From Saccoglossus kowalevskii (taxonomy: Eukaryota > Hemichordata > Enteropneusta > Harrimaniidae): a DNA stretch of 64,000 bases. The stretch's first letter is position 1. Each line of letters opens with the position of its first letter. This document shows, in pieces, positions 31,307 through 63,173 of this stretch. The notes beneath the pieces are model-generated. The model made no database searches. It saw nothing but the letters and a program-made list of their open reading frames with translations, and was not told the DNA's origin. Location of the stretch: assembly GCF_000003605.2 (NCBI RefSeq), contig NW_003137821.1:256406-320405 (forward strand), in the 5' to 3' direction. The position numbers and the translations under genes are program-made.

Positions 31307-31708
31307 GTAAGCACATTCGATAGAGCACACATGTTTATGCCCACCAATGAAATGTTTTTGTAGCATTCCGTTTTTAAGTTGTGAAATTCAGTGAAACAAG
31401 TTGCCGTCTGGCGACTCCCAGTGACTGGAGATTTAAATTCTTCACGCGTAACGTTTTACTCGCAGGTAGGGTTGCCAATGATGCCAGACTACGAACTTGG
31501 GGTTTATTGCGTCTGCTACCGAAGGTGAATAGTTCTTAGTGTAGCTGGCAGGGTGGATTTTAGTTTGTGTGTTTAGACTAGTTTTTACTAAATTCTAACT
31601 CGACTACAGTATGTTATCGCGTTCTTGTATGGACTTCCTCGTATGCTGCTGTAATAATTGAAATTTTTTCCATGGTCTGACGCGTCTCTCGTTTCTTTTT
31701 GCTAGGAA

Positions 31709-34359
31709 ATGCCAGAAATGGAACCAGAGCAACGTATTCAGTCTATATTGGATTACGACAAGTATCAGCCTTATTTTCTCGGGCACGACGAAAATGAGGA
31801 GTTTTACGGAGCTACGCATACACCGTCGCCGAGTGAGGACATTTGGAAGAAATTTGAGCTGCTTCCTACACCGCCTCGGAGTCCCGGTAGGCCTGCGCCG
31901 ATACCACTGCTCTCTGTCGTCGCAGAAGCCTTACAGCAAGTTTCAGAAACATTGGACGATGATAACCATACCCAGACATTCGTGTTTCCAGACCTTTCAA
32001 ATTTGAAATCGAACCTTATACAGGACTGCATGTGGAGCGGTGGAAATAACGGCACTCCAGAAGAAACTACGAAGGGAGAAACTACTCTGCCAGCGGCTAT
32101 TGCCGCTTGTTTGACCCCTCCCCCTCTGGATTACGCCGTTGCTGAATGTGTCGACCCTACTGCCGTATTTCCATACCCTCTGAACGACCCTAAGGATCAA
32201 CTTAGCGGACCATCGCAATCAGATTCAGGTAAATTCTATTTCTCTTGTTAAAACATCGATGCAACCCAGTGAATGAACGGGTGTTGCATTGTTTGGTAGC
32301 AATCGACGTCTGTGTTGCAACATGTCTCTAATATTGCTACAATTTTAACTAATGAATCTAATCAATGATAAGGCTGTACTGGAACGTCCACTAGTTTCCG
32401 CCCAGACACACATTTCGAAGGTTCAGAGACTAGTTGAAAAGCGGAGACCGTCAATGAATAATTCTTCACTTTTGTTGTTATAGTCTGATGATTCATGATT
32501 CGTTCATTTGGGCAGAAATCGAACAGCTGGAGTGGAGAGTCGTCGCATTTTTTTGTTCGTTCGTACACAAACGCTTTCTACAGTTTGTTTTACCACTGAA
32601 ACTAGTTACGTAACGAGGTGTTGGACGCCTTTTCACACCTCAGCTTGATTTTAAAAGCACTTGACCCCCCTTTGTCGTTAGATTAAGCGAGTCTCCCTGC
32701 TGATTTAGTTGCTATTTCCCGGCCATGCGATGACTAGACAACTGTTTAATATATCGATCTCGCATGGTAATAGTCTCTGCGACCCCGATTGCCCAACGCG
32801 CCGGAGCATATCGGCTGTTCTTGATTGCTCTGCGATTAGACAAATCGGAGAGATTTCGCAATACTAAAAGATAACAGACGTGTCTGTGTGGTGCACTGGG
32901 CATTCTTGCAGTATGTGGTAAACGGTATGCTGGACATAGCTGCACGTAGACTTAGTCCCGAGTTTAGCCGTGTGAAAAATCTGTATGGCGGGAATTTTAG
33001 TTGGATTGCTTGGTCTACGCGTAATACATGCCATACATGAAATTACGTTTTGACCGGCTAACACAATGACTAATTCGTCTCTTTATTTCACGCCACCAAC
33101 GGTGTGCTGTAAGTTGGAAAATGAGCATGTTTTCTATTATTCTGAAATCGTTTATGAGCTCATTAATTCAATGTAATGCATAATAAAACGTTCATTCATA
33201 ACGCGCCTTATTATAGAATGACATTTTGCTTGCATAAAATATTAGACTAATTTCTAAGATTTATTGTTGGCTCTAGGCAAAAATCTATATGCACAGTTTC
33301 ATATCATTTGAATGGTGGTACAGGACTCTCCTACTTGTGGTCATGTGTTAGAATGAATCTAGGGTCCTCTTAATTAAGCAATGCTTAATTAATGAATAAG
33401 TAATTAACTAAGTGAATTGTAGGTGTTAATCCATGGAAGTCAATAAACAAAAGCATTTGTTTGGATAAATTTGTTTATAAGCTTTTACTATGCTGCTGTC
33501 ATGCTGTTGTCATGCTGTTACAGTGTAAGAGGCCTGGATACGTAGTTTTTTTTTTATGTTCTTGTAGTCAATGATTTTGTCCAGTTTACTGTTCCCAATT
33601 ACCTGATGTAAACAGTGGACAAGTTTCATCATGTTGGGAGCTTGGACTGACTAGTTAACCTCTCTGACCCTAGGTCAGGCTCTACTTTACGTGCATGTCG
33701 GATTTTTTGAAAACTGTCAACCACTAATGAACTATTTTTTTTTTTTTTTTTAATTTACAGAAGAAGAAATTGATGTTGTTACTGTTGCAGAGAAATTACA
33801 ACAGCCACCAAAAAGAAAGGTTACAGCGCCAGCTACTCCTGCATCAAACACCGCCACTACCACTACCAATACTACAAGTAGTATCACTTTAAAGCGAGTT
33901 AGACCTAGTCATAACCATCATAATCATCATTCATACTCTACACCAGCCAAGAAAACAAAACAAGAACTGTCCATGGCAGAGTTGAAAGCACTGATGCAGC
34001 AGTCAAATGGAGGTCGTCGAACGCCAGGAAACAGCCGACCGGGCAGTCGTTCAAGCAGCAGACCTAGTTCTGATTCTGAGGACAATGATAAGCGTGCCAC
34101 GCATAATGTGCTGGAAAGGAAGAGAAGAAACGATTTAAAAACAAGTTTTTTGACTCTGAGAGACAATGTTCCAGAATTGGAGAATCAGGAGAGAGCACCA
34201 AAAGTTGTAATTCTTCGCAAAGCCACTGATCATATACAACAAATCACTGCCGATGAGCTACTCCTGGTAAAGGACAAAGAGGGCTTAAAAAAGCGAAATG
34301 TTATTCTTCTGGACAAACTTAACAGACTAAAAAACGATCTCAACTTTATGTTGTATTAG
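31709..34359 (+). CDS. MYC: Myc transcription factor (bHLH leucine zipper)
   Basis: Coding exons are 31709-32228 and 33761-34359, encoding 372 residues. The splice is AGATTCAG|GTAAAT to TTTACAG|AAG (phase 1) and yields SDSEEEIDVV, matching the acidic junction of vertebrate MYC. Domains in order: Myc box 0 (about 14-36, [10 protein letters not shown]); Myc box I with the phosphodegron LPTPPRSP (Thr54 and Ser58, equivalent to human Thr58 and Ser62, the GSK3/Fbw7 switch); the Myc box II core DCMWSG (106-111); [14 protein letters not shown] (147-160); a His-rich patch and NLS-like PAKKTK (235-240); basic helix-loop-helix about 283-335 with E-box-contacting His288, Glu292 and Arg296; and a zipper to the C terminus with heptad Leu ending in Met. 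The protein should pair with Max and bind CACGTG in the nucleus. It is shorter than human MYC, mainly between boxes II and the acidic region. The ATG lies 3 nt after the acceptor. TRIT1 follows on the same strand. Confidence 0.97.
32229..33760 (+). other. Myc intron 2
   Basis: A 1532-bp GT-AG intron. Its acceptor is preceded by a long T run (33734-33751). A small perfect inverted repeat, TTAATTAAGC / GCTTAATTAA with a 3-nt loop, lies at 33370-33392. Reading into the intron adds seven codons and stops, so an unspliced message would encode only a 180-residue N-terminal fragment with boxes 0-II and no DNA-binding domain. Confidence 0.85.
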
Positions 34360-35649: not shown

Positions 35650-35767
35650 ATGAATCATGGGTAATTACAATGGCGGCGCCCATGCGGGTGCTTCCCCGAT
35701 TGCCAGTATTGGTGATTTTAGGAGCTACTGGCACTGGGAAATCCAAACTGGCATTGGAATTAGGTAG
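35650..35767 (+). promoter_or_regulatory. Upstream ATGs before TRIT1
   Basis: If transcription starts left of 35650, two upstream frames precede the TRIT1 ATG: a 4-codon frame (ATG at 35650, TAA at 35662-35664) and an overlapping 36-codon frame (ATG at 35657, TAG at 35765-35767) in another phase. Either could damp TRIT1 translation. The start site is unknown, so this is conditional. Confidence 0.3.
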
Positions 35768-35807
35768 CAGATTCAATGGTGAAATCATCAGCGCAGATTC
35801 CATGCAG
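35670..35807 (+). CDS. TRIT1: TRIT1 coding exon 1
   Basis: Encodes 46 residues with the P-loop GATGTGKS and ends in ADSMQ. Donor CAG|GTAAAG, phase 0. The ATG at 35670 is followed by GCGGCGGC-like codons. No in-frame ATG lies nearby upstream. Confidence 0.93.
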
Positions 35808-47800: not shown

Positions 47801-50800
47801 GAATTTTTGATTCCCAATTTTTTAAAAAAATGGGTGCGACTTCTATTAGGGATGCGACTTCTAATACAGATTTTACGGTAATAGTCCAACACCCATGCAA
47901 TTGTGCGCTTTTAATAGAGTAAATACAGTACATTAATTATTCTACTAGACAGATGGGTACACTGGTGGTTTGATGTGGTGTATTAATATAATGCGCAGTC
48001 TGAGCGTAGCCTATATAAATCATCTTAAATGGGTTTGCATTCACGTAAGTGTTCTGTACTTCCAATAAAATAATGGTTTCTCCAGACGTTAATAGTGTAA
48101 TATTGCAATGTTGGTACTTGGATAAATAGCTCTGACAAGGACGGAGTGATTCCTACATTTGAAATCGACTATCAAAAGCTGCATCCCTAATAGCAGGCTG
48201 CATCCATTCTTTTTGAATATTTAAGAATCAAAAATTCTCTATTTCTCATACGTTTTGATGCTCTAATAGGCGCAACATCCCGTCTGTTGTATTGTACCAT
48301 GTACCGGTAGACGCAGCTTCTAATACAGATTTCACAGTACACTTCTCATTAACATTGTCTGTACGTGTTTCTGATAGTTTGACAATTGCAATGTGTTACA
48401 CGTCTATCTATGGTGACTTAGGTTTGCATATAAATTATATGTCTTTACCGAGTACATTAAAACTTTGCACACATTACGCATTCGTACATATGAGACTCTT
48501 GTACATGCTCATTTCAATTTAGGCTTAATGATTCAAATTTTGAAATGTACATTCATATACATATATCATCTTAGAATGTAAACGTATATATTTATTACTC
48601 AAACTTAGATAACTTGTCATTATTTATCCTGGTTTAACCTTTTCACCACCAGACTTTCTTGCCCAAATTTTTCTACACTTTTCCCTTATATTCTTAAATA
48701 TTTTTGGAAATGAACCCTTATTTTAGAGCCAACAGACAAAATTTGAGTGAATAAACCTTTTTTCCTATATTTTACATTCAACTTGTCAAAAATCAGTGAA
48801 AATAAATTCCATACAAGACACCCAAAAAGTCTTTTCAGCGAAAATTAATTCCAGCTAAAATAAAGTATTTTACAGTATTTTGTGATGAAAAGAGGAAACT
48901 GGCTGATAAAACTTTTATTTTCATTACATTATTATCATTTTATTACCATTACTGTGTTATGTTGTGACCTATTTTCTTTTCTCTACTATATTCATGCTAA
49001 ATTATATAAACAGTTATTTTCTTTCTGAAATATTCATTGCATGATTGTATCATTAATTATTTATTCCAATTTTCAACAAGCAAATTTTCACTGACATCTG
49101 CTCAAAAATGATGTATACTATTTGACATTGCCGTGTTCAGGTGCAGTTCTGGTTGTCTCCATTCCCGAAAGGTTTGATTCATCCATGTGGAACTCGTATA
49201 TGAATTATTATTACAATCATTGTAAAAATTGACATAATAGGAAAGTACGAGAAATCTACTATTTATACGGATTTATTTTTTGAACGAGCGATTAAAATTG
49301 ACAATGACGGGATCATCCACAAGTGTAGCATTGTCATGTATGCATTGTATTCTATTGCAGGTCTACAAAGGTTTGGATATAATAACAAATAAAGTGCCAG
49401 CAGCCGAGCGTCAGCAGTGCCCTCACCATATGATAGATTACGTGGACCCGCTCGGCAGATACACGGTCGTGGATTTCCGTAACAAAGCCGTGCCAATTAT
49501 ATCCTTTATAGTAGTGTCATCCAGAATTGACGGTAATTCCACTTTTAAAAGCGATTTCCCAGGGACTGTGTATTGTCATGTGTTAGTTAAATTTTCCCTC
49601 CCAACATTGTGAATGCAGTGATTGTCCCTTCCCCCCCCTCAAAAATATCATACCCATGCTAATTGTCGCGACAATAGAATATCTTATTTATCATTATTGT
49701 ATTAATTGTTTTAGAATAAGAGTTCTATTTATTATTCATCAAAATTAAGTGAAGAGGTGGCCACTATGTTGAACATTTTCCGTGGAGAACCCTTATTCGG
49801 TGTCCGGCAACGTACACAGCTACTTGATTTTACGCCCTGCATACAGCATTGGTGCTTATAATCTACAAATAGCGAAGTAACTAAACTCTAAAATTAGACT
49901 GTGTTTTCACTGAATCCGCGTTTCACAATGATTCAGCATTTGACATGTAACACACCTCAAAGTACAGAGGTCGTACTACACTGACCTACGTATGACCTGT
50001 AAATATGAAATAGTGGACATATTTCAAAAATATAAGAGGTCAGAAAAAGGTTGTCTAAGTTCATGCATCAATGTGTGCGCGGCGATTGCCCAGTCAATTG
50101 TGGCACGGAAACGGTAGGGTGGGCGGAGTTCAGATGGGGTTGTTGGGATGGGTTGGCAGCGGTGGTGTGTGTGTGTGTGTTTGTGTTAAGGGACAGACGA
50201 ATGAGAAGAAATGACAACTGTTCATTTTGTGGAGGCTTTCTATATAAAATGTGTATTTCATGCTTTCTTAAATATGTATTTAATAATTTATTTTTCATAA
50301 ATTTAATTTTTTTCAATTTTATTTATTAGTTATTTTATAAGGGTAGTTTTTGGAAAGCGAAAATAAGTTAAACCCACATAAATTCATTATTTTTCAAAAA
50401 TGTTATCATTATACAATGGATCAATGAGATTTGGTCCAAAAATGCATAAAAAATATTTACAAAATGTTTCACCAAAAGAATATACATGTAGCTTTCGATA
50501 ATTAATAGAGAAATGCTGTTTCTAATACTTTCTAATAACTTTAGACATCAACACTGGCCAAGCTGGATTTATAGTTGTGAATCTGCTCTAAAAATAAAAT
50601 GTAATAATGCAACAACCCTTTAACCCTAGGTTTATGTAAATGGTTGAAATCACCTCTTATATGCATTGTTTTTTATTTGAAAATTATGTTTTTTTTTCAA
50701 TTTTTTTTTATATTATCTGTTACCCAGAATCCTTCCAGTAATCACACCATGAACAAATAAGTATATTTTGAGATGGCTGAATTGTTAAAAACTATATTGG

Positions 50801-53800
50801 TTGCGTGCTTGAAATAATTTCTGATTTATTCAGCGTAGCAAAAGTCAGGGTTCCTCCCACAGTTAACCCAATGTATTAAAACCTGTGTAAACAGATTAAC
50901 CCTGGTTAGTCTCAATCTTGAGTTCTGTGTTAAATATATAATAAAAATAAATTTATTGCATCCTTAGAAATAGTTAGTTGACAGCAATAAAATGTAGAAT
51001 ATAATACTAAAATAAAATTGTCCGTTATTGTTATTTCAGATTTCAAATATTTTGTATAAGTATTAACCAACTTGTCTTATTGTGGGTAGGATGACTTTTA
51101 AGTTACTAGATGTACATGTATCAAGCAATAATGGCCTGTAAAAAAAATTATGCAGATTTAATTTTAATTTTGTAATAAGACTATTCAATACCGTAACAAA
51201 TAGATGTGTACGTTTATTAAATAATTATGGTTTTGAATACATGCATAACAAGTTGATTGGGATGAAAAACGTCCTTTGAAACGAAAAACAAACATTTCCC
51301 AATTATGCCGTATGTGGTGCATTTCACTGATAAGTGGAATTGTAAAAATAATGTGGTTTAGGTTTTGTACTATTAAATAAATACTATTTTTTTGCTATGA
51401 AATGGACAATTCAAAATTAAATGTTTCTTATGGCTTTCATGAAGTGCATATATTCTGATATGATTTTATGTCTCGTTGGGAAAATGTATAGAATTGTTAT
51501 ATTAAAAATTGAATGTTGACAGAGATGAAAATTTCTGCTTTATTATAAGCATTGACTCTACAGAGATGTTTTCCCAGTACTGCATCCGGATCTTCTTAAG
51601 TACAAATATTTGAGTATGCAAACTTCAATAGTTGTTGATTTTTACATAATACTGTATAAAATACTTTATTTTAGACGTAATTAATTTTCGCTGAAAAGAC
51701 ATTTTGGGTTTTTTGTATGGAATTAATTTTTACTGTAAAATATAGGGAAAAGGTATATTCGCTGGATTTTATTTTCACTGATTCAGCGAAAATTAATTCC
51801 AAGTGAAAATAAAATATTTTACTGTATGAAATTCTCTGGACCCCCTTCTCATACCTAAAAAAGTGCCTAGGAACTCCAATATTTAGGTGACAGTGCCCAC
51901 GATAGTTGGTTATGATGCCTCCAATCATCAACTTTGATCAGATTTTGAAAACTTTTGGTTGAAATATGTAAAGAAATAATTTTGCTCCAGATTTTTGCTA
52001 TTGGGGGGGGGGGGGTACTGGTATGTCCACAGAGAACCACAACTGCGTAATTTGCATAAGTTATTAAAACAAATTTAACTGATGTTCTTAATATTGAAAT
52101 CTTTGACATTCTATTTTTAAAGAGCTTTACTCTTCCCAAGTTGTTACCAAGTAGTTGGTCGTCTATATATAATTATTTCTCTTCTCAATGCATATGTATG
52201 TTAAGTTTTGTTCTGTTGAGCGAAATTGACAATGGGAAAATCCTGACAGGTCATTCATGCTGTTCAGAACAACATGAAAAATCAGACCACTGCGTCTCGT
52301 TGAATCGGTAGATTCGTCATCAGTATAATTTGATATATATACTATTTGATTTATCCAAAAACAAATGGATCCCCAAAGTACTATATCGCACAACGAGACG
52401 ATTGAGATGCAGGTCCACGATTTTGTATCCTTCAATTTTTTCTCTTTTTATTGAGCTGTACAAACCAGATGCGCTTTTGAGTAATATTACAGAATAATTA
52501 CATTAACCTATTAGAAGTCTAATATTGCTTATATTGATGTAGTTTTGCAAACACACTAACCTGATTTTATATGGATACATTTGGATTTTCTGCTAGCGTA
52601 TTCGCTGTAATAGCGCATACGCAATCGTAAATTACACGAATTATTCTATGCTCAAAATACGTAGTACTGTAAACTTCTTTATTTTCGCTTGGAATTAATT
52701 TTCGCTATTTTCACTGAAGGAATGATTCAGTGAATATAAAATCAAGCGAATATTCTTTTTTTCTCGTATTTTACATTTAATTCGTTAAAAATCAGTGAAA
52801 ATGAAATCATACAAAACACTCAAAAATTCTTTTCAGTGAAAATTAATTCCAGCTAAAAGAAAGTATTTCACAGTATTTAAATGATTCATCATATAGCAAA
52901 GGAAACTTTTGGTTTAGGAGAACTTTAATTAACTTGTGTGAAATATATCAAATGTAAAAGACTGTTTGTTAACATGGTATTTGAACATGCATTGCTCACC
53001 GACTCCCCCCTTTTATTGACGTTCTTAAATTTATTATAATATGACATATTTTACCATAGAACACTTCTGTCATTTTAATACTTAATACAGCATAGATGCT
53101 ACTGTTTCAAATGTGAATATAATCCTGAAAAATGTGTTGCTATTCCATTAACCTTTTGTGTACCATTATTTTTCTCAACAAAATGTTGGTGCCTGTTATT
53201 ATGTATTTTTCTAAAAATTTTTGACCAGAAGGACATACACGTAAATTACCAATCTCTTAGCTACAAGTCTTTATCAAAACATTGGAAAAATACAATGGGA
53301 TTAAAATTTGTAAATGATGATGAATGTTGACTTCGACCTTCCAAGGGTTAATAGTTGCGTTCACGCACAGCTCCTTAGCACGGGCTAAGAGGTCAAATTC
53401 CTTAGCCCGTGCTAAGAAAACGTGCGTGAACGCTTAGCACGGGCTAAGGAATGCTAAGTACGGGTTAAATCTGATCCGAATTTAAGACGCGGTCTAGACC
53501 TTAGCACGGGCTAACGAAGTATGCGCGAACGCTTAGCCCAGGGCTAAGCGCCCTCTGCGGCGACCTTTGGGTGTGAAAATTGTCCCATGTTCGTATAACG
53601 ACACTATTCCACCAGTCATTACTCCGCGCTCGCTTCCACACTAATCGGGTCACTGTAGTAGTAGAGCGTACAGCAGCTCCAATCGTAGACAAAATAAATT
53701 TGGTTCGCTGTCTACGACGTGCATTAATAAAACTCTGTATTCTGTTACGACCGTTGTATACTGTTTATGTGCATCCAAATAAGTTGGGTCCGTCTTCTCT

Positions 53801-56800
53801 CGCGTACCTGTGCACGTCGCTTCAAATTTAGAACGAAACATGCCAGCAGCAGAAATAGAACCTCGCGCGTGTCATCCATTTTTCGTTCGCAAATAGCGGC
53901 TTACCAAAGGTCACCGACTAATGGCACCTCTTAGCCCGTGCTAACGACTGGCCCGCCCTGTGCGTGGACGCAATTGGGTCTAGCCAAAATGCAAATATGC
54001 TAGATAAGCCTAAATCAGCTTAAATCTTAGCCCGTACTTCGTGTAACGTGAACACAACTAATAATGCAAAGTATTACTAAGACAATGCAGCGGGAGTATC
54101 GATGAGATCGCGTACTGCCTGAGTGCATGCTTTGCAGTTTACTCGTAATAACATTAATTATTATTATACATCTTTTCCTTCCAAGGATACACCATCGGAA
54201 TGCCGAAATCCAAAATGTTTAGAACAGAATCAGCAAACTACTTTGTGTGGGTCCGGTCAAACCCTGGGGCAGCCATGTTTCTTGTTTTTATTATTAGAGG
54301 ACGCTTACGCGTGTAATCGTTCCATATTTGGAATTCGCGTTTCTTAATATGGTAGGATGAAAATACCCAGTAAAATACCGCAAAATTACGGCACGCTGTA
54401 ACTTATGGCGTTACGGTGAAAGATGTATAATAATACATTTTATCATATCTAGTTTATGTGACATTTGCAATTTGAATGCTGTATTAGTAGCACAAGCGAT
54501 TATGCAAATTACTGAGTAATAAGTAATATTTTAATAATCAGTATGCAAGAAATGTAATATTTGGTTTACATCTTGCTTCTACTAGGGCAAATACAGAATT
54601 ACTGAAGCCTGTACTTCAAACTACCTGTTGCGAATTTGTCGTCTCTTTCAACCCATTTGTCTTCATCACTCAGTATCGCACAAGGTCCACCATTTCCATT
54701 AGCAATGATTTCAATACAATGGCTAGAGCCATTTTCAAGGTTTTCAACACCAAAATTCTTAAATAGCATAGAATTAAATTAACTTGGACCCTGGGAAAAC
54801 GTGAATAAGCCGTGAATAAATATTTACCTCTTAACATATATATTAAGTGGTTTTGTCGAAAAACTAGAAAACATACACACAAAAAGTGGCTTCACAAGTT
54901 GTTTAACTTTCAATAAACCCCCACATCAATGAAGGTTACTGGTGTTTTTGTTTTGAACTTGACTATTGTCTGAATGGTTTAATTCAAGTAGGGGGTGGTG
55001 TTATTATCCTGAATGGCTTCATGACATGTCTCTTTCACACTGCATACGTTGATGAGTTTCTCAAATGATATGCTCAGGTGTTCATGCACATAAAAGGCAC
55101 GTCTTTTTGACTTTTTTAATTGGAATACCTATAGATTCAAAAGCATGGGAATTTGATTTTGGGATAGTGGGAAAATGCAATCCTGGCATGGAGGACCACG
55201 CCTAAATTTGATTGACCTTCAGCTATGGTCTTCCTTTTGTAAAACCAGTCACAAAATGAAGCTTGACCATTTGAACTTGTTGATATAATTCGCTGGTACC
55301 ATCTTCAATCGTGAGTGTTTTCTAATTAAAATAATCGTAAAATTTGACCCAAAAATCAAAAATAGGATAGGATAGGATAGGATAGGATAGGATAGGATAT
55401 TTTATTTGGAACGTACACAAAAACAATGCTTGAGTAAAGTCCAACGTAAGAAACATACAGTATATTTATGTTTCTTGAAACAGAACTTGTGTTCGTTCTT
55501 CCCTGGATACATGCAGTTGCCGTTAGAATTTGTCATTAATTTTATTCATCACAAGTTGAAAGCTTCTATGGATGGTTGAAAGGAATAGGAAATAGACTGC
55601 GTCAGTATACAACGGATAATTCTTCCTCCAAAATTTTGCTACAACATTAAAAGAATCTTTTGTCTTTTTTTAGCCTGGAAGTAATTAGTTTATTGTTCAT
55701 GGAAGTCTGGAAATCCAATTTGTTCTTTGTATTATAGACCTTTCTTTCTGTTAATTATTATTATAATTATTATTATTTGAAACTTGTATAGCGCCATAAT
55801 TCTCGAGAGTCTGATCAGAGACGCTTCACAATTATAAGAATTTAAAAAAAAAAAATGAAAGTTATTGATGTTCGTTCTTGTAGGCGTAGGCTTGTTGAAA
55901 CAATGACGAGTCTTCATTTTCTTCCTAAATACAGATAACAAATCACATTTTTTTCATGTCAAAAGTAAAATTTATTTAGTTTTGATGCTAGATTCTGAAA
56001 GGCACGTTTTTTATAAGATGACTTTACTTTAAGTAGTAGTTGTGTTATCGAACGGAGATTACAAATGGGATTATATGGCTTTAGATAAGTAGGCTGGTGC
56101 TTAGCCTCGAAGTAGCTTAATTGTGATTAGAAGAAGTTTGAAGTCGATACGCATGGGTATGGGTGGCCAGGGAATGTTGCTTTCTAAGGTCTGTGCATAT
56201 ATGCACCGTGAGAGAACCACAATACAGTGATTGGACTTCATTCATTTGTAATGTTATATAATCTAATGGTAGCCTAAGCTGTACTCAATCTATTGTCGTG
56301 TACACAACCTTTTTCAAAGGTTAATAAAAGCTGCCTTAGCTCAAGTGTGTATATGGTGATTACACCCTGAAAATGCTTGGAGGAAAAAATAAAAAATGAT
56401 ACGCTGTTCTCTCAATAAGGGGCTTTCCCACCCGAAATGAAGATTGTTTGAAACAAGCAAACATTAGTATTCTTTTTATAGACTTTTGTTTTTTGACAAT
56501 TCTCCAAATACATTTCTTAGGTGTGAACAGGGAGGTGTAATGAGATTATTATAGCTCCCTGGTATGAACAAATTAGGTTAAATGTTGGGAGAATATCTCT
56601 CAAACAAGAGATTCTTTATTTATTTTTTTCTGTATGAAAAAAACAAAACAAGAGAATTTTTTAAAAATATTGAAAAACCACCCATATGATGAAACTATAT
56701 AGTTTGCTTCCGGGTTTGTTGTAAGTTAAGTTGTCAAAAAATCTACATTTTTCTCCTGATCTAGGAGACTGTCCTTCCTTGGAGATGGTTTCTGTTTTTG

Positions 56801-59800
56801 ATGGAAAGTGCTTGATTGTCTCAACAAAGCCCAACAACATTATAGTGATAACACTGTGGATCTTGCATGAACAATAGAGAGATTAACTCTCAGCTTAGAA
56901 AGACAAAGGGATGTTTTTTTTTGTAGCAGTGGAGATTTCTTTGTCTTTCACAAAAGCAATTGTGCACATAAGTGAAATGCATCATGGGTATACTGCTATT
57001 CTTTAGATAGATAAGTAATATGCCACACATTGTCGAAATTGCACAGATTTGTAAACTCAATGTTAACATTGAACCTGTGTGTGATTCTACTGGAGACCAT
57101 GCATTTTAAAGTGATAAAATTCATAAATCTGATTGGGTGCCTATGTAAAACATATGACCAATAGGAGTTGGCATAGCATACAGCAATGAACATGAAACAA
57201 AATGGCTGGATGTTGAATTTCCAAAGAGAGCGCACTTTAATACACACTTGCTGAACAGGATTATGCCAAGGCACAGTCCCTCTATCCCCGGTCTGGAAAC
57301 GACTAGCGTTCTTTTGTCTCGAACCGCAGTGCGGGTAAACAAACCATTCACACGCAGGCGGAGGGAGTCAGGAAGTCAGACAGATTACAATACCGGTACC
57401 TTCAAAATTTACCGTCATGCAAAGCGATACCTCATTGTATGACTTCCCTTTGACTTCAAATTCGGGCAACCACAACGTAAACAAACATGTAAACAAAATT
57501 ATCACTATGAAATTTGGGTTTTTTGAACCCTGATACGCATCACAACCAGCCTACCAACTCATAAACATCCAGTTCCTGCAATTCAAAGATTAATATCGGG
57601 AATTATGTTCATTTTCTCGTTTTAATAGGGAAAAAACTTCGTGTGCCAACATGCTGACATCGCTAAACAAATCTGTCAAAATGGCNNNNNNNNNNNNNNN
57701 NNNNNNNNNNNNNNNNNNNNNNNNNNNNNNNNNNNNNNNNNNNNNNNNNNNNNNNNNNNNNNNNNNNNNNNNNNNNNNNNNNNNNNNNNNNNNNNNNNNN
57801 NNNNNNNNNNNNNNNNNNNNNNNNNNNNNNNNNNNNNNNNNNNNNNNNNNNNNNNNNNNNNNNNNNNNNNNNNNNNNNNNNNNNNNNNNNNNNNNNNNNN
57901 NNNNNNNNNNNNNNNNNNNNNNNNNNNNNNNNNNNNNNNNNNNNNNNNNNNNNNNNNNNNNNNNNNNNNNNNNNNNNNNNNNNNNNNNNNNNNNNNNNNN
58001 NNNNNNNNNNNNNNNNNNNNNNNNNNNNNNNNNNNNNNNNNNNNNNNNNNNNNNNNNNNNNNNNNNNNNNNNNNNNNNNNNNAAAATGTGTCGCTGCTGG
58101 TAAAATAGATGAATTAAAGAACTACTCGCCGGCTAAAATATGACCTTATACAGATATCCTGATTAAAAAATTATGTGAAAAAGTACGAATTCTGGAATAA
58201 ACAACTAAGTTGTAAAAAAAAATACATAACACTGACGATGTCAAATCACGTACTGATCACGTGACAATGCTTTGCCCACACCCGCAATACGCCTTTGCCA
58301 GGGAAGAAGACCAATTCACACCTAATACAATGACCGTTTCTAGACCGGGGATAGATGGACTGTGGCCAAGGTATATTAGTGAGAGGACGGGCAAATAAAC
58401 AAATCTTAGCTAATGTGCGTAAACAATCTAATGATCAGATGTCTGCATAGTTTTTCTCTCAAATATATTTTGGGGTGCAAGAGAGGCATATACTGGGGGA
58501 TTAGGCCTAGGAATGGGATGCGTAAAGAGCGTTTATCTTTTCATGGTGCAATCACCTAATGTAAGTTAAATTTATTACACACTAGGCTTCCATTAATAAT
58601 ATCTCCATAATCTCGTTTCATGTTGGGAACTTTTTACCATCGATGTCGTCATCGAAGTCTTATCTAACTGCCACGAGTGATTGTGGTCTGAAAATTACAC
58701 AGTTGTTGCGAATGTTTCAATTTTTGAGTTCATTTGAATAATGACTTTAGAATGATAAGATAAGGGTATGCCACTGATATGTGATGAAAATAACACTTCA
58801 AGTCGAACAAAAGTGGGAAATAATCCCACAATTTTATTTTATATTCACCAATTTAGTATTACATAACCTTGCTTATTGCAGCTTGTGCAATCAGAACTTC
58901 GCGTCCACTATGTTCTATAATATATTAGTCAGAATTCAGTTTGATTAGCGTTCGTAGAAATCCCTCAGAATGGGAATTTTACAAAATAATGATTTGCTTG
59001 CATTTTTAAAAACGTTCGTTAATCACCTTGACTGGCATCGTACGTAGATGATATTTTATCACGTCAGAAACTTCCCATCATCGTTGGCGGCACCAACTAT
59101 TACATCGAGTCGCTGCTTTGGAATATACTATTGGAGATGCCGGTAGGTCATTATGTTTGTCACTTCCAATGAAAATGTAAAGCAGTATTGTGATAGGACG
59201 TTTGTACTCCTGTGTTTACTCTATTACTTGTAAAAATGTTTGTATAAATGACAACAGTGCCTGTGGTAAAAAAAAAGTCTGATTTGAATACAACAAAAGA
59301 AATTTTTGATTTGCATGCTTTTGTATTTCGAGACACTACTAATGAAGAAAATACTGTAATTTAGATAGAATGTTGCCTTTTATTCATTTGGAATAATTGT
59401 CATGTGACCTTGTGCCATGCCATATAAAGTCTGATTTAAAGTTTGATTTTTGGGAAATTTTTCACCCATTAACCTTTTCACCACCAGTTCCCTCTTTTCA
59501 CAAATTCACAAAATAGTCCCATTTATAGTCTGCACATCCCTTCAAAACAAACAATTTATTAACTCATAACAACCTACTGAAGGAGGTTAAAGGTTACAAC
59601 AACAACAAAAATTACAGATAAAAATTAATCAAATTACAATGGCTAATAGTTTAAAGACAACCAGAAACAGACTAAATTGAAGTTAGTAACGGAAATATAT
59701 AATAAAGTAAAATGAAACACCAACAAAAAACTATAAACTGAATATAAAAACAAAAACCCAATGAATAGGTTTAAAAAAAAAAGTTAATCTTCAGAAGATT

Positions 59801-62800
59801 GGGACAAAAATAGAAAAATGTTTTGAGTAGAAAGTGAAAATTGACTCAAATTTTGTCTATTGGCTCCAAAATTAGGGGTCATTTCCAGGAATATTGAAAA
59901 ATGTGAGAAAAATGTGCAGAAACATTTGGGTGAGAAAGTCTGGTGGTGAAAATGTCAAACAACAAAGTCAGCTTGTGTAACTTTACACAAAACAAGTCTT
60001 CATATCTTGTAACGTTTTGTATTTTAGTACAACTATAATAATGCTCTAGCGGTATTTGCTTAGTGTTTTTTTGAAATGTAATGCAAGAATTGTAAGGAAT
60101 GAAAATATGCAAAATGATTCATTAACAATTTGGCGGGAACAAATTATTGCGTTTTATTTATTTTATTTTTTTTTTAAATATTTTTTGGGCCAGGCGACAG
60201 TTCCGGACATTGGGTATCACTGTTGTCTCTCCTGACTTTTTTGTATGTGCAAATTGCAAGTGCTAGTGACGAAACACAGTGCATTTTGCCACAGAAGTCG
60301 TATTCATGTTTGAGACTACATGACAGGGCTGTGTGGCCATCTCTCTGTCAAATGGCAATTTGTAATGCGCTATCCTGGCGTCAACCGGACCCATCAAACA
60401 CAAGCACCTGCGGACCTTAACCAAGGTTCCCCCAAAGTCGCATTCATTAGTGAATGAATCTCCATTGAGTCTGTGGCACACTCACCCAGGGTAGGGGTCG
60501 ACCCTTTGATGTTCAACCTAAGGTAGGATTTGAACTTGGGTCTACCGATCATGAGTCTGATGCGACAACCACTATGCTACCAGTAACCGGTAATTATTGC
60601 GTTTTAATATTATTGTGTGAAAAATGCATGTTTGCACAGAATTTGAATGACTTTGTTTTCATGTTCTTGTGTTTTGTGATTTTTCAATCCACTGGTCAAA
60701 AGATAGCCATTAGGCCAACAGCTATTTTGCCCCAAACCTATTAGTCAGACATGCTCATGCTCACGACCTTAGACGATAACAAGTCTGGACCAATTCCATA
60801 CAAGATTTATTGCCGTATGGGGTGTAATAAAATTGCTCATCATCTTGTTTAGTGATTCCATTCAAATGGCTGACTGGTTGCCATTTTGTTATACACATGT
60901 ATATGTATTTGTATGACATTCCTCGACTCATTCAAGTTCGTTGATCGCTATCAGGTGTCACTGAATACGCACTTGACAGGAGCCGTGATGAATTGTCAGT
61001 AATCTTGTCGTAAATGATGATATGTCTCACAAGGTGGATTCGTGTGATTGGTTGATGGGGGCGTAACAGGGTTCTGTTGTCAATACTGAACAAGGATGCA
61101 AAATGAACAACCCTTACCATAGTATTTATTTTAAATGTACCTAATCAAGCATTGAAAAACAGCACAACAGTTCACACGGAATAGAAGGTGATCTTTTCTC
61201 TTCCAAGGAGTTTATTTTACCCCCTTTGATACGTGCAACCTAATTGAAAAGTTGATTTGAAAGACTGGAATTTCAATTTCATTTTCTTCAAATTGTTTAC
61301 AGATCAGAGACTCGGGTGAATTGATTCTGAACAAAGAACTTCACAGAAAAGGTGAACCCTCACTAACACCGGGAAAACGTAGTTGGAACGATGATATAGC
61401 CGGGAGTGCTCTGAAAGTGAAAATGCAGAAGACTGAGGGGGACGTTGGTGATTCTAATGTGAAAATTGAAGAAAAGGACCATGAGGAAAAAGACGAGACT
61501 AAAAAAGGGGTGATGAAAAGTGAACTTGAAAATAAAAGAGAGGAACTTAGACAGTTTATTTCTAACATTGAACTTGACAAAGTGAGTGGAACTGAACTTC
61601 GATGCAAATTAGAAGCAATTGATCCAGTTATGGCAGACGGAACTCATCCCAATGATAAAAGAAAACTATTTAGGTAATAGTTTATCATTGCTGGACTATA
61701 GGTTGTTTTTTATTATCCTAGAATTGATGCGAGTTCTGCTGACTAAGACAGACTGCGTAGGCACAATAATCTGGTATTGAACATTAGTTGATTGAATGAT
61801 GAGAGATCAAATGATTGAAAAAGAAAACCCTGCTTGCATCATCTGAATTGGCCACTGAAGTACATGTATTTGAGAAATATTTTATCAAACTTTTTCAAAT
61901 TTGGTTACTGTAAAATGAGTAATTTTCACTGGGTTTAAATTTCGCTGATTTACCATTTCCGGCATATTCAGTGGATTTTAAATTCACGCTTTAATCATTT
62001 AGATAATGTGTTCTATGCTAAATTTTACATATTCACTGGGTTTTAATTTAGCGCATTTTCCAGTCAGCGAAAATAGACAAAATTAAAACCCAGTGAATAA
62101 TTAATCCTTTTACAGTATGTTATTTCTAAGTTTCTGGTGAGATCCAAAATGCATGACATCAGCATAAAAAAATCTGAATATGTCATCGGGATATTATTCA
62201 AATTTTGTACCTGATAATGTGAGCAAACTCTCACATTGGACATAATTTAAATAAATATGTTTTTTCTCATTGTTTTTATTATTTCTAAAATACTAACTTT
62301 CTTTACCGTCATGTTTAGTCTCAATGTGAGGTCACAACCTTTTTTTCCTTGATGACACTTTAGAAAATACAATATATGTAAAGCCTGAAAAACAACAACA
62401 TTGTAATAAGTCTCATCAAGACGCTATATGAATTTTTGCAAAGTCAAAATAAAAAAGGAAAACACTAGAACAAACAACAGAAAATAATATTTTTTCAGAG
62501 AATTCAGGTTCTAAATGGGTTTGATAGGATTTTGGCAATGATTGGACATCCACATTTTCCTAGCACTTACAGTAAAATCTGTATTATAAGCTGCATCCCT
62601 AATAGAAGTTGCACCCGTTCTTTGATTGAGAATTGAGAATCAAAAATTCATCATTTCTCATATGTGTAGATGCTCTAATAGAAGCCGCATCTCTTTTGTT
62701 GTTGCATTGTAACATTTTATTAGAAGCCGCAGCTTCTAATACAGGTTTTACTGTACAAGCAAAAATACAGTACTATCCTACTACCTTAAATACCAAAAAA

Positions 62801-63173
62801 ATCAGCATACAATGCAGCTGGTATTTACCTTCAATACGACATTTATGTGACATTTGCAATTTGAATGCTGTATTTGATCCATTAGTAGCGCAGGTACTTA
62901 ATTGACAGAGGCATTTCTATCAACAAAAAAGGTGTATTTGAATGATCCAAGTATACAGGTGAGGCCATTATTTCATGCACTTCTAATGGAGCAAATACAG
63001 TACACTGAACACATTTTATTTCTATTTCAGAAGTCTGCAGGTTTTTGTGGATTATGGTGTGATACACAGTGAATTACTTGAAAAGCAGCGTTCAACCGAG
63101 GGTGGAAGCGTGCTCGGAGGTCCTCTCCGTTACAAAGATGCGTGTATATTGTGGCTACAGTGTGAAAGATCTG
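35670..63173 (+). CDS. TRIT1: tRNA dimethylallyltransferase TRIT1 (5' five exons, gene runs off the window)
   Basis: Five exons (35670-35807, 49361-49498, 59044-59142, 61303-61673, 63031-63173) join in frame to about 296 residues, aligning with human TRIT1 and bacterial MiaA. The enzyme transfers an isopentenyl group from dimethylallyl diphosphate to adenosine 37 of certain tRNAs in cytosol and mitochondria. Visible motifs: P-loop GATGTGKS (18-25), [12 protein letters not shown] (42-53), [13 protein letters not shown] (76-88), [12 protein letters not shown] (106-117) and [15 protein letters not shown] (about 240-254). The short N terminus has three Arg and no acidic residue before the P-loop, compatible with weak mitochondrial targeting. 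A second Met at position 5 could give an alternative start, as in yeast MOD5. Exon 4 adds roughly 70 residues of Lys/Glu-rich sequence absent from human. Intron 2 is AT-AC (U12 type). The zinc-finger C terminus lies beyond the window. Confidence 0.95.
36333..36360. repeat. Short perfect hairpin
   Basis: TGGAAGGTAC and GTACCTTCCA pair perfectly around an 8-nt loop, just left of the Harbinger-like element. Confidence 0.6.
36386..37991. mobile_element. Non-autonomous Harbinger-like DNA transposon
   Basis: Terminal inverted repeats of 31 bp beginning GGCCAGACTTTT and ending TTGTTTCGCGA match at 28 positions. They are flanked by the direct duplication TTA (36383-36385 and 37992-37994), the 3-bp target typical of PIF/Harbinger. 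A subterminal inverted segment (TTCAGTGTTCTCCA near 36769 and its reverse complement near 37932-37945) supports a single element. The 1.6-kb body has no long open frame, so it is non-autonomous. Confidence 0.75.
38229..38430 (+). mobile_element. MITE family A, copy 1
   Basis: A 202-bp element, TACTGTGGAATACTTT to AAAGTATTCTACAGTA. Its inverted ends extend about 45 bp, and TTTATTTTCRCTG motifs recur inside in both orientations. Ends in TA/TA suggest a TA target. Confidence 0.85.
38621..38704. repeat. Fold-back hairpin
   Basis: CACGGTTACT and AGTAACCGTG pair perfectly around a short A-rich loop. The stem continues imperfectly for about 35 bp on each side. It could be a small MITE or a miRNA-like fold; no family was recognised. 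Confidence 0.45.
39910..40127. mobile_element. MITE family B, degenerate copy
   Basis: The right half (about 40056-40127, ending TTTTACAGTA) matches family B, including CAGTGAATATGC and GTGAAATTAAA. The left boundary near 39910 (ATTATTCGCTAGGTTTAAAT) is weaker. Confidence 0.5.
40196..40670 (-). pseudogene. Myb/SANT-like (trihelix) DNA-binding protein, broken
   Basis: The minus strand encodes [15 protein letters not shown], then [13 protein letters not shown] and [10 protein letters not shown]. After a one-base shift in frame near 40395 it continues [11 protein letters not shown] and [16 protein letters not shown], stopping at 40196. Trp-x-x-Glu-Glu, the spaced hydrophobics, and the WDEL-ILG-RP ending are the signature of Myb/SANT-like domain proteins. 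These occur as the accessory gene of PIF/Harbinger transposons and as domesticated host genes. The single shift could be decay, an assembly error or a very small intron. No transposase lies beside it and no clear terminal repeats were found. It sits inside TRIT1 intron 1 on the opposite strand. Confidence 0.6.
40896..41107 (+). mobile_element. MITE family A, copy 2
   Basis: A 212-bp element with TACTGTGGAATACTTT at the left and GTATTCTACAGTA at the right, close to copy 1 throughout. It has an extra CGAAAATAG duplication in the right arm. Confidence 0.85.
42022..42971. mobile_element. 950-bp TIR element with CACACGRCAGCATT ends
   Basis: The left end TGCTACATTCACACGACAGC and the inverted right end TGCTATGTTCACACGGCAGC match for about 34 bp with a few differences. 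The subterminal zones are GC-rich (CGAGCCGGCTCAAGCC, GAGCCCCGACAGGGTTGAGC), unlike the AT-rich core. A minus-strand open frame (42472 to about 42205) lies inside and has no recognised domain. The target duplication is unclear. Resemblance of the ends to 53353-54059 (GTTCACGC) suggests the same superfamily. Confidence 0.6.
42101..42472 (-). CDS. Unrecognised open frame inside the TIR element
   Basis: From the ATG at 42472 ([18 protein letters not shown]) the frame is open for about 120 codons. The last 30 or so are read out of the GC-rich subterminal repeat. The N-terminal two thirds are hydrophobic and basic, and the mid part ([20 protein letters not shown]) looks helical. It may be a captured gene fragment or a decayed transposon reading frame. 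No function is proposed. Confidence 0.25.
   Translation of the reverse strand: MAASMIFIFGVFKKFLQFPLDLFSRSSFCRIILYLIFLPIYRSISLLYQIYIRTRNSSSSQILHEITNDVASAIIEMKGYLKKTIEGMIWAPIIGPCVYTVGPCRGSTLSGLNPVGILEPSLA
44549..44759 (-). mobile_element. MITE family B, copy 1
   Basis: A 211-bp element from TACTGTAAAGGGG to TTTTACAGTA. It is the reverse-complement orientation of the copy at 61906-62117 and shares CACTGGGTTTTAATTTAGC and its inverse. Confidence 0.85.
44786..44996 (-). mobile_element. MITE family A, copy 3 (reverse)
   Basis: A 211-bp element from TACTGTAAAATACTTT to GTGTTTTACAGTA, in reverse orientation to copies 1 and 2. It begins only 26 bp after a family B element. Confidence 0.85.
45816..46046. 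mobile_element. MITE family E, copy 1
   Basis: About 230 bp starting TTAACCTTTCAC and ending GTCTGGTGGTGAAAACGTG. It shares GGCTCCAAAATTAGGG and TTCATAGTCTGCA with 59469-59957. The inverted ends follow the pattern TTTTCACCACCAG. Confidence 0.75.
46544..46860. repeat. Nested tandem duplication with a TGTCACA array
   Basis: A segment beginning GAAATAAATTCTGAAGGGCC occurs at 46544 and again at 46649. In the first copy a single TGTCACA is followed by AGTAAA and then GGATTGCCTCCAT. In the second copy that point has expanded to 12 units of 11 bp (46697-46828, alternating TGTCACAAATA and TGTCACAAAAA) before the same GGATTGCCTCCAT. The open frame across it is a by-product of a stop-free repeat. Confidence 0.9.
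47270..47472 (+). mobile_element. MITE family A, copy 4
   Basis: A 203-bp full-length element, TACTGTGGAATACTTT to TATTCTACAGTA, very close to copies 1 and 2. Confidence 0.85.
47698..47880. mobile_element. MITE family C, copy 1
   Basis: A 183-bp element, TACTGTAAAATCTGTATTAG to AATACAGATTTTACGGTA. Internal GAAGCCGCGGCTTC forms a local palindrome, and GCGACTTCTATTAGGGATGC repeats it near the right end. Confidence 0.85.
48163..48339. mobile_element. MITE family C, copy 2 (left end worn)
   Basis: Shares GCATCCCTAATAG, AGAATCAAAAATTC, GATGCTCTAATAG and the end CTTCTAATACAGATTTCAC with the other copies. The left terminus is not recognisable. Confidence 0.75.
48634..48877. mobile_element. Chimera of MITE families E and A
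   Basis: 48634 to about 48750 is the end half of family E (TTAACCTTTTCACCACCAGA, then TTTTAGAGCCAACAGACAAA). From about 48750 to 48877 it is the right half of reverse-oriented family A (TTTTTTCCTATATTTTACAT to AAGTATTTTACAGTA). The switch occurs within GAGTGAATA, where both families have similar bases. Confidence 0.75.
49361..49498 (+). CDS. TRIT1: TRIT1 coding exon 2
   Basis: Encodes 46 residues beginning [11 protein letters not shown] and ending DFRNKAVPI. The acceptor is TCTATTGCAG. The donor is ATATCCTTTA directly after ATT (phase 0), the U12-type AT-AC consensus. Confidence 0.93.
50164..50186. repeat. (TG)n microsatellite
   Basis: TG dinucleotides with one interruption. Confidence 0.85.
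51650..51826 (+). mobile_element. MITE family A, copy 6 (internally shortened)
   Basis: 177 bp from TACTGTATAAAATACTTT to AAAATATTTTACTGTA. It keeps TTAATTTTCGCTGAAAAG and CGCTGGATTTTATTTTCACT but lacks about 30 bp of the middle. Confidence 0.8.
52665..52875 (-). mobile_element. MITE family A, copy 7 (reverse)
   Basis: 211 bp from TACTGTAAACTTCTTT to AAGTATTTCACAGTA, in the same orientation as copy 3. Confidence 0.8.
53353..54059. mobile_element. Harbinger-derived non-autonomous element with subterminal repeats
   Basis: The ends AGTTGCGTTCACG and (inverted) AGTTGTGTTCACG are flanked by the direct triplet AAT (53350-53352 and 54060-54062). About eight copies of TTAGCACGGGCTAA or its inverse occur near the ends (53374, 53400, 53435, 53455, 53503, 53532, 53932, 54026). 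Two of them form a perfect 16-bp hairpin stem. Inside, the minus strand reads RARSNDWW (about 53608-53631), like the N-terminal Arg-Ser-x-Asp-Trp-Trp motif of Harbinger transposases. This suggests an internally deleted Harbinger element. The base composition is richer in GC than its surroundings. Confidence 0.65.
54453..54596. mobile_element. MITE family D-like copy
   Basis: Shares a 26-bp left segment (54453-54478, TTTATGTGACATTTGCAATT and on) with 62842-62867, followed by CTGTATT-TAGTAGC. The right end CTTCTACTAGGGCAAATACA matches the D family end. The interior differs. Confidence 0.6.
55363..55399. repeat. (TAGGA)n microsatellite
   Basis: About 7.4 copies of TAGGA, followed by TATTTTATTTGGAACGTAC. 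In minus orientation this looks like the 3' tail of a non-LTR retroelement ending in (TATCC)n. Confidence 0.9.
55748..55850 (-). mobile_element. 3' end of a minus-strand LINE or SINE
   Basis: An (ATT)n stretch (about 55748-55778) abuts AACTTGTATAGCGCCA, and TCTGATCAGAGACGCTTCAC follows. In minus orientation this is a GCG-containing hairpin tail and an (AAT)n terminus, a 3' end shared by many invertebrate non-LTR retroelements. The 5' extent (toward about 56100) could not be defined. Confidence 0.5.
57272..58364. mobile_element. TIR element with a 7-bp target duplication
   Basis: The left end CACAGTCCCTCTATCCCCGG and the inverted right end CACAGTCCATCTATCCCCGG continue matching through TCTRGAAACG, about 30 bp with two differences. 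The direct repeat GCCAAGG flanks both sides (57265-57271 and 58365-58371). A 7-bp duplication and CA termini fit P-superfamily elements better than hAT (8 bp), but 397 bases of the centre are unknown, so the class is tentative. Confidence 0.75.
57686..58082. other. Assembly gap (397 N)
   Basis: A run of N inside the 57272-58364 element. Unlike the 50-N gap, its flanks are not copies of each other. Open frames running through it are meaningless. Confidence 0.97.
59044..59142 (+). CDS. TRIT1: TRIT1 coding exon 3
   Basis: Encodes 33 residues, [16 protein letters not shown] then [10 protein letters not shown], containing the conserved VGGT loop of the prenyltransferase. The acceptor is AC (U12 type). 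The donor CCG|GTAGGT is phase 0. Confidence 0.93.
59469..59957. mobile_element. MITE family E, copy 3, interrupted
   Basis: The left part TTAACCTTTTCACCACCAG to about 59550 and the right part from about 59818 to GTCTGGTGGTGAAAATGTC match family E copy 1. The 270 bp between them (59550-59818) are A-rich and absent from copy 1, so they are an insertion or the part lost in copy 1. Confidence 0.7.
60142..60606 (-). mobile_element. tRNA-derived SINE with intact target-site duplication
   Basis: The element body 60157-60591 is flanked by the perfect 15-bp direct repeat AATTATTGCGTTTTA (60142-60156 and 60592-60606). On the minus strand the head carries an A box TAGCATAGTGGTT (60567-60579) and a B box GTTCAAATCC (60526-60535), 44 nt apart as in a tRNA. 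The anticodon-loop-like CTCATGA suggests a tRNA-Met relative. A non-tRNA body of about 300 bp follows, ending in an A-rich tail (about 60157-60180). The perfect duplication implies a fairly recent insertion. Confidence 0.85.
61303..61673 (+). CDS. TRIT1: TRIT1 coding exon 4 with a charged insertion
   Basis: 371 bp starting after TTTACAG and ending TTTAG|GTAATA (phase 2). It encodes 123 full codons. The C-terminal part [16 protein letters not shown] followed by HPNDKRKLF matches human [23 protein letters not shown]. The preceding stretch of roughly 100 residues is Lys/Glu-rich (such as [16 protein letters not shown]) and about 70 longer than human. Confidence 0.92.
61906..62117 (+). mobile_element. 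MITE family B, copy 2
   Basis: 212 bp from TACTGTAAAATGAGTAATTT to AATCCTTTTACAGTA, the near full-length inverse of the copy at 44549-44759. Confidence 0.85.
62568..62755. mobile_element. MITE family C, copy 3
   Basis: 188 bp from TACAGTAAAATCTGTATTAT to TAATACAGGTTTTACTGTA. The order of shared blocks shows it lies in the opposite orientation to copy 1. Confidence 0.85.
62868..63000. mobile_element. MITE family D, abutting a TRIT1 acceptor
   Basis: 133 bp with ends CTGTATTTGATCCATTAGTA and (inverted) CTGTATTTGCTCCATTAGAA. It ends 30 bp before TRIT1 exon 5, leaving just the pyrimidine tract and AG between. Confidence 0.7.
63031..63173 (+). CDS. TRIT1: TRIT1 coding exon 5
   Basis: Starts after TTTCTATTTCAG and ends ATCTG|GTAGGT (phase 1). 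It encodes [16 protein letters not shown] and later [15 protein letters not shown], matching human SLQVFEETGISHSEFL and GGPLKFSNPCILWLH. Confidence 0.93.

What the first reader, a model, noticed from the sequence alone, without database searches (positions are those of the whole stretch)
49499..59043. Minor-spliceosome AT-AC intron in TRIT1
The donor ATATCCTTTA and branch site CCTTGAC, 12 nt before a terminal AC, are textbook U12 signals. Using them restores exact colinearity with human TRIT1 ([17 protein letters not shown]). A GT-AG solution would need a phase-1 donor at this point, and none exists. It makes production of a tRNA-modifying enzyme depend on the minor spliceosome. I do not recall whether vertebrate TRIT1 has a U12 intron at this place.
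Basis: partly seen in the sequence, partly recalled or inferred. Interest (0 to 1): 0.72.

Follow-up and report, generated by a model that had tools for sequence, protein, structure and literature searches.

The report
Minor-spliceosome intron in TRIT1 gene
A tRNA-modifying enzyme gene in an unnamed animal-like genome carries one intron with textbook signals for the rare second splicing machine; this is a convincing but ordinary example of a known kind of intron.

Summary
Intron 2 of a TRIT1-like gene runs 49499-59043 (9545 nt, phase 0). It starts ATATCCTTT and ends with a CCTTGAC branch site whose A lies 12 nt before a terminal AC. ATATCCTTT occurs once on + and never on - in 64 kb, exactly at the exon end. 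AT-AC joining gives a product without a gap at the junction in the 5 alignments shown of 6 matching solved relatives and against Pfam IPPT (95.8 bits). The four other introns modelled from end to end are GT-AG. The genome holds U4atac, two U6atac loci and PDCD7/U11-59K matches. U11 and U12 searches did not complete.

One qualification: a phase-1 GT-AG solution exists 34 nt downstream (49532|GT...AG|59048). It is in frame and adds 10 residues, but fits worse (83.7 bits). It is the main rival and a possible alternative isoform.

Splicing was not seen (no RNA data). Whether human TRIT1 has a U12 intron here could not be tested. Verdict: very probably a real U12-type AT-AC intron, ordinary, a new member of a known kind.

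The parts
35670..35807 (+). TRIT1 exon 1 (proposed ATG to ...SADSMQ), P-loop region GATGTGKS; followed by GTAAAG donor
   Evidence: tblastn with recalled TRIT1; exon model; PDB search of the joined protein
49361..49498 (+). TRIT1 exon 2 ([11 protein letters not shown]...[11 protein letters not shown]), 138 nt, ends in phase 0
   Evidence: Pfam IPPT match in own genome
49499..59043 (+). U12-type AT-AC intron 2, 9545 nt, phase 0
49499..49507 (+). U12-type 5' splice site ATATCCTTT; UCCUUU is complementary to AAAGGA in the genome's two U6atac loci
   Evidence: U6atac letters; the pairing was checked by eye
59026..59032 (+). U12-type branch site CCTTGAC, branch A at 59031, 12 nt before the intron end
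59042..59043 (+). terminal AC of the intron
59044..59142 (+). TRIT1 exon 3 ([33 protein letters not shown]), 99 nt
   Evidence: Pfam IPPT match in own genome
49533..59047 (+). rival GT-AG intron (ACG|GTAATT ... GTACGTAG|ATG), in frame, product 10 residues longer
61303..61673 (+). TRIT1 exon 4, with a charged stretch not matched in recalled human TRIT1; GT-AG introns on both sides
63031..63173 (+). TRIT1 exon 5; the gene runs on past the window end

Best explanation
Intron 2 of the TRIT1 (tRNA dimethylallyltransferase) gene is a U12-type AT-AC intron removed by the minor spliceosome. By established knowledge of minor splicing (recalled), U11 and then U6atac would pair with ATATCCTTT, U12 would pair with CCTTGAC and expose the branch A at 59031, and the two exons would be joined after the AC at 59043. 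This gives a phase-0 junction inside the conserved IPPT domain. Shown here: the signals, their spacing, the colinear product, and U4atac, U6atac and PDCD7 matches in the genome. Inferred: that the splicing happens, and that full-length TRIT1 depends on it.
For: The nine donor letters match the recalled consensus, the branch site matches, and the branch-to-end distance of 12 nt lies within the optimum of 11-13 nt stated in PMC6717393 (passage). The donor 9-mer occurs once on both strands of the 64-kb window, exactly at the exon end. There is no gap at the junction in the 5 alignments shown of 6 matching PDB sequences, and the 79-aa product matches Pfam IPPT 1-74 to 2-75 at 95.8 bits. It is the best of 92 candidate splice pairs. 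Own genome: U4atac 67 bits (gathering 53), U6atac 136.2 and 111.8 bits (gathering 33), PDCD7 three exon matches of 40.1, 31.8 and 31.6 bits (cut-off 27); each of these searches rang in 0 of 14 control genomes (RNA letters).
Against: No RNA data. U11 and U12 snRNA and CENATAC searches did not complete. [quoted passage not shown] A GT donor 34 nt downstream scores higher (5.7) than the gene's own exon 4 donor (4.2) on a matrix recalled from memory and has an in-frame AG partner. The pyrimidine fraction before the AC (0.62) does not set this intron apart from the gene's GT-AG introns (0.62-0.75). A search for STX6, meant as a control gene with a conserved AT-AC minor intron, found no match, so no second AT-AC intron was shown in this genome. 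One of the three PDCD7 stretches reads across a stop.
Confidence: 0.95

Rival explanations
1. The intron is mainly removed by the major spliceosome as a GT-AG intron, 49533-59047. The protein then carries [11 protein letters not shown] in place of V at the junction and is 10 residues longer.
For: The pair is in frame and stop-free; its donor ACG|GTAATT scores 5.7 on a recalled matrix, against 4.2 for the gene's exon 4 donor and 8.2 to 10.5 for its four other GT donors. [quoted passage not shown]
Against: Pfam IPPT falls from 95.8 to 83.7 bits, with an insertion at a place without a gap in the 5 alignments shown. The acceptor has little pyrimidine tract (0.56 against 0.62 to 0.75 for the gene's four CAG acceptors). 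It leaves the U12 donor and branch site unexplained (about 3e-10 per register).
Confidence: 0.03
2. An AT-AC intron removed by the major spliceosome (U2-type AT-AC).
For: Such introns exist (PMC2831892 and PMC8280824, passages).
Against: The donor scores -12.5 as U2 and 14.3 as U12 on matrices recalled from memory, and a U12 branch site at the right distance is not expected for a U2-type AT-AC intron.
Confidence: 0.01

Closest known systems
U12-type (minor) introns, AT-AC subtype, of animals
   Same: ATATCCTTT donor, CCTTRAC branch site, 12 nt branch-to-end distance, the only AT-AC intron among five introns modelled in the gene, minor snRNAs in the genome
   Different: No difference in the signals was seen. 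The phase is 0, the less common phase for minor introns. Presence of this intron in TRIT1 of other species was not testable here.
TRIT1 / MOD5 / MiaA tRNA dimethylallyltransferases (Pfam PF01715)
   Same: P-loop, IPPT domain match, C2H2/matrin-type zinc finger encoded downstream
   Different: Exon 4 encodes a charged stretch without a counterpart in recalled human TRIT1; exon(s) for the DYQHGIF...-like part were not found next to a run of N

Membership tests
U12-type AT-AC intron | 5' splice site RTATCCTTT (consensus recalled) | tested here: met
   ATATCCTTT at 49499-49507
U12-type AT-AC intron | branch site close to TTCCTTRAC, 11-13 nt from the 3' splice site | tested here: met
   CACCTTGAC, branch A 12 nt before the end; distance range from a passage of PMC6717393; the sequence consensus is recalled
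U12-type AT-AC intron | no polypyrimidine tract next to the 3' splice site | tested here: inconclusive
   pyrimidine fraction 0.62 at -20 to -5; the gene's four CAG acceptors have 0.62-0.75
U12-type AT-AC intron | the host genome has a minor spliceosome | tested here: met
   U4atac, two U6atac loci, PDCD7; U11 and U12 RNA not answered
U12-type AT-AC intron | removal in vivo depends on U12/U6atac snRNPs | not testable with these tools
   needs RNA data and experiment
TRIT1 orthologue | IPPT domain and C-terminal zinc finger | tested here: met
   Pfam PF01715 174 bits; zf-met 28.1 bits (cut-off 21.2) and zf-C2H2_jaz 23.1 bits (cut-off 22.6) on downstream exon pieces set side by side
TRIT1 orthologue | only such gene in the genome | tested here: inconclusive
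   PF01715 rang at 2 places, exons 2 and 3 of this gene; 4 candidates scored, exon by exon, so a diverged or finely split copy could be missed
TRIT1 orthologue | complete open reading frame | tested here: inconclusive
   a run of N follows exon 6 and the next exon(s) were not found by tblastn

The most novel reading that the evidence does not exclude
The U12 AT-AC pair (49498/59044) and the overlapping in-frame GT-AG pair (49532/59048) are both used. The choice between minor and major spliceosome would then yield two TRIT1 proteins that differ by a 10-residue insertion inside the IPPT domain, making tRNA i6A37 modification a readout of minor-spliceosome activity.
Probability: 0.06. Interest if true: 0.45.

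Novelty: new member of a known kind. Interest (0 to 1): 0.2.

Why it matters
If removed as inferred, a tRNA i6A37-modifying enzyme is among the genes whose full-length product needs the minor spliceosome in this species. AT-AN minor introns are the subtype reported to need CENATAC (PMC8280824, abstract and passages). Human alone has hundreds of minor introns (691 U12DB introns are named in a passage of PMC7367187), so this adds one example and changes no general view. It does show that the gene would be mis-modelled by an annotation that allows GT-AG introns only.

Tried and rejected
All in-frame, stop-free AT/GT/GC - AC/AG pairs with the last exon base at 49400-49639 and the first exon base at 58960-59119 were scored against recalled human TRIT1 (GT and GC donors with AG only); 92 qualified and the AT-AC pair at 49498/59044 was best. 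Donors at 49507 (ATAGTAGTG) and 49495 (ATTATATCC) with the same AC scored 264 and 263, but neither has a U12 donor motif.

Rfam over the window at gathering threshold: 0 matches. Repeats in 49400-59200: 12 direct families, the longest copy 44 nt, and 31 inverted pairs (25 shown), the longest arms 61 nt; none of those shown reaches the splice sites in a way that suggests a recent insertion there, the nearest being a weak 20-nt arm at 49509-49528. A run of 397 N lies inside the intron, so an unseen exon there is not excluded by sequence, though the protein needs none.

Literature, full text: TRIT1 with 'minor intron', 'U12-type', 'minor spliceosome', 'U12' and 'ZRSR2', and 'tRNA isopentenyltransferase' with 'U12-type', gave 0, 0, 1, 1, 2 and 0 papers. 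The four papers were seen only in the listing; by title and start of abstract none is about minor introns. 'U12-type introns' with 'AT-AC' and 'Branchiostoma' gave 1 paper, listing only. A search on minor introns in animals gave 68 papers, 20 listed; five of these were read as passages (PMC10639083, PMC8280824, PMC2831892, PMC6717393, PMC7367187). TRIT1 with MYCL and 'synten' gave 0, and TRIT1 with exon and splicing terms gave 24, 8 listed, none opened. Supplementary tables and online databases, where lists of minor introns are kept, could not be read, so I do not claim that a TRIT1 minor intron is unreported.

Genome searches not answered: U12 RNA RF00007, U11 RNA RF00548, CENATAC PF14968, COX1 PF00115, meant to help identify the organism, and a search for a processed copy with joined exon DNA. 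First tries of PF01715, PF16021 and PF09177 (3, 32, 47) were answered on repetition. PF09177 (STX6) found nothing, and the tool says that this does not show absence.

Full report
What was checked. The window is part of contig C2915 of a 572-Mb assembly in 4830 contigs. The four other introns modelled from end to end are GT-AG (13553, 2160, 1357 and 6388 nt), the donor after exon 6 is GT, and only intron 2 is AT-AC (9545 nt, phase 0). Exons further downstream were seen in tblastn but not modelled.

Is it more than chance? ATATCCTTT occurs once on the + strand of 64 kb and never on the - strand, and it sits at the last codon that aligns with relatives. CCTTRAC with an AC shortly after it occurs once on + and twice on -. 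At the intron's base composition, the donor, a branch site at one of six distances and the AC have a joint chance of about 3e-10 per junction register. This assumes independent letters; even with dozens of registers allowed, chance is not a good explanation.

Does the junction make sense as protein? Joining 49498 to 59044 gives VYKGL...[19 protein letters not shown]...NILLEMP. phmmer against the PDB matched 6 distinct sequences, named tRNA or adenylate isopentenyltransferases (that they include yeast MOD5, bacterial MiaA-type enzymes and a plant enzyme is recalled). In the 5 alignments shown there is no gap at the junction; the only gap, in 3a8t, is 15 residues before it. Against recalled human TRIT1 the only gap is likewise upstream, at PL-GRYT. 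Pfam IPPT aligns residues 1-74 to positions 2-75 at 95.8 bits.

The rival. A GT-AG pair, 49532|GTAATT to GTAG|59048, is also in frame and free of stops and makes the protein 10 residues longer. Its donor is not bad: on a matrix recalled from memory it scores 5.7, above the gene's exon 4 donor (4.2) and below its four other GT donors (8.2-10.5). Pfam gives its product 83.7 bits, 12 bits less. It puts an insertion where the shown relatives have none and leaves the U12 signals as coincidence. I judge it unlikely as the main product but not excluded as an alternative one.

Machinery. The genome encodes U4atac (67.0 bits, gathering 53), two U6atac loci (136.2 and 111.8 bits, gathering 33) and PDCD7/U11-59K (three exon matches over the cut-off of 27 bits, best 40.1; one reads across a stop). 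The U6atac sequence of both loci contains AAAGGA, the reverse complement of TCCTTT in the donor (read by eye). Searches for U11 and U12 RNA and for CENATAC did not complete. A control search for STX6, whose AT-AC minor intron is listed for fly and human in PMC2831892, gave no match, so no second AT-AC intron of this genome was examined.

Known context. AT-AC introns are 24% of minor introns in PMC8280824 and about 26% of human ones in PMC10639083 (passages). [quoted passage not shown] AT-AC minor introns convert to U2-type less often than GT-AG ones (PMC2831892, passages). [quoted passage not shown] TRIT1 is not named in the main texts of PMC6717393 or PMC7367187. Their gene lists are in supplements or databases that could not be read, so whether human TRIT1 has this minor intron remains open.

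Gene identity. The joined six-exon protein scores 174 bits to IPPT and matches the solved tRNA isopentenyltransferase 3eph (yeast MOD5, recalled) at 1.5e-38. Downstream exon pieces encode a zinc finger of the zf-met/JAZ type, as recalled for TRIT1. The IPPT search of the genome rang only at this gene (2 places). A Myc gene lies just upstream on the same strand; from memory, human MYCL and TRIT1 are neighbours too, which would be conserved gene order and would support orthology.

Verdict. The finding is right in substance: a U12-type AT-AC intron with textbook signals. It is ordinary of its kind. The species was not identified.

Noticed in passing
31706-32248 and 33754-34356 (+): A Myc gene (Myc_N 124.1 bits in the first frame; HLH 58.4 bits and Myc_N 25.8 bits in the second) ends about 1.3 kb upstream of the TRIT1 start on the same strand. 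Recalled: human MYCL and TRIT1 are neighbours on 1p34, so this may be old conserved gene order. 17 of the 251 open frames of 60 aa or more were scanned with Pfam; only these two rang.
   Followed up: partly
directly after TRIT1 exon 6, beyond the window (C2915, from about 326,090): A short run of N follows exon 6 and the exon(s) for the DYQHGIF... part of TRIT1 were not found. Behind the exon 6 donor the sequence reads DDFHGV after a TGA, which may or may not belong to a missing exon.
   Followed up: partly
61303-61673 (+): TRIT1 exon 4 encodes a long charged stretch with no counterpart in recalled human TRIT1; in the one PDB alignment shown for the whole protein it lies between the two matched stretches.
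   Followed up: no
L008:2523-2595 (-): A tRNA match (54.2 bits) about 0.9 kb downstream of the weaker of the two U6atac loci.
   Followed up: no
53357-53452: Short inverted repeats inside the intron: arms of 20 nt, 100% complementary, and of 33 nt, 88% complementary.
   Followed up: no
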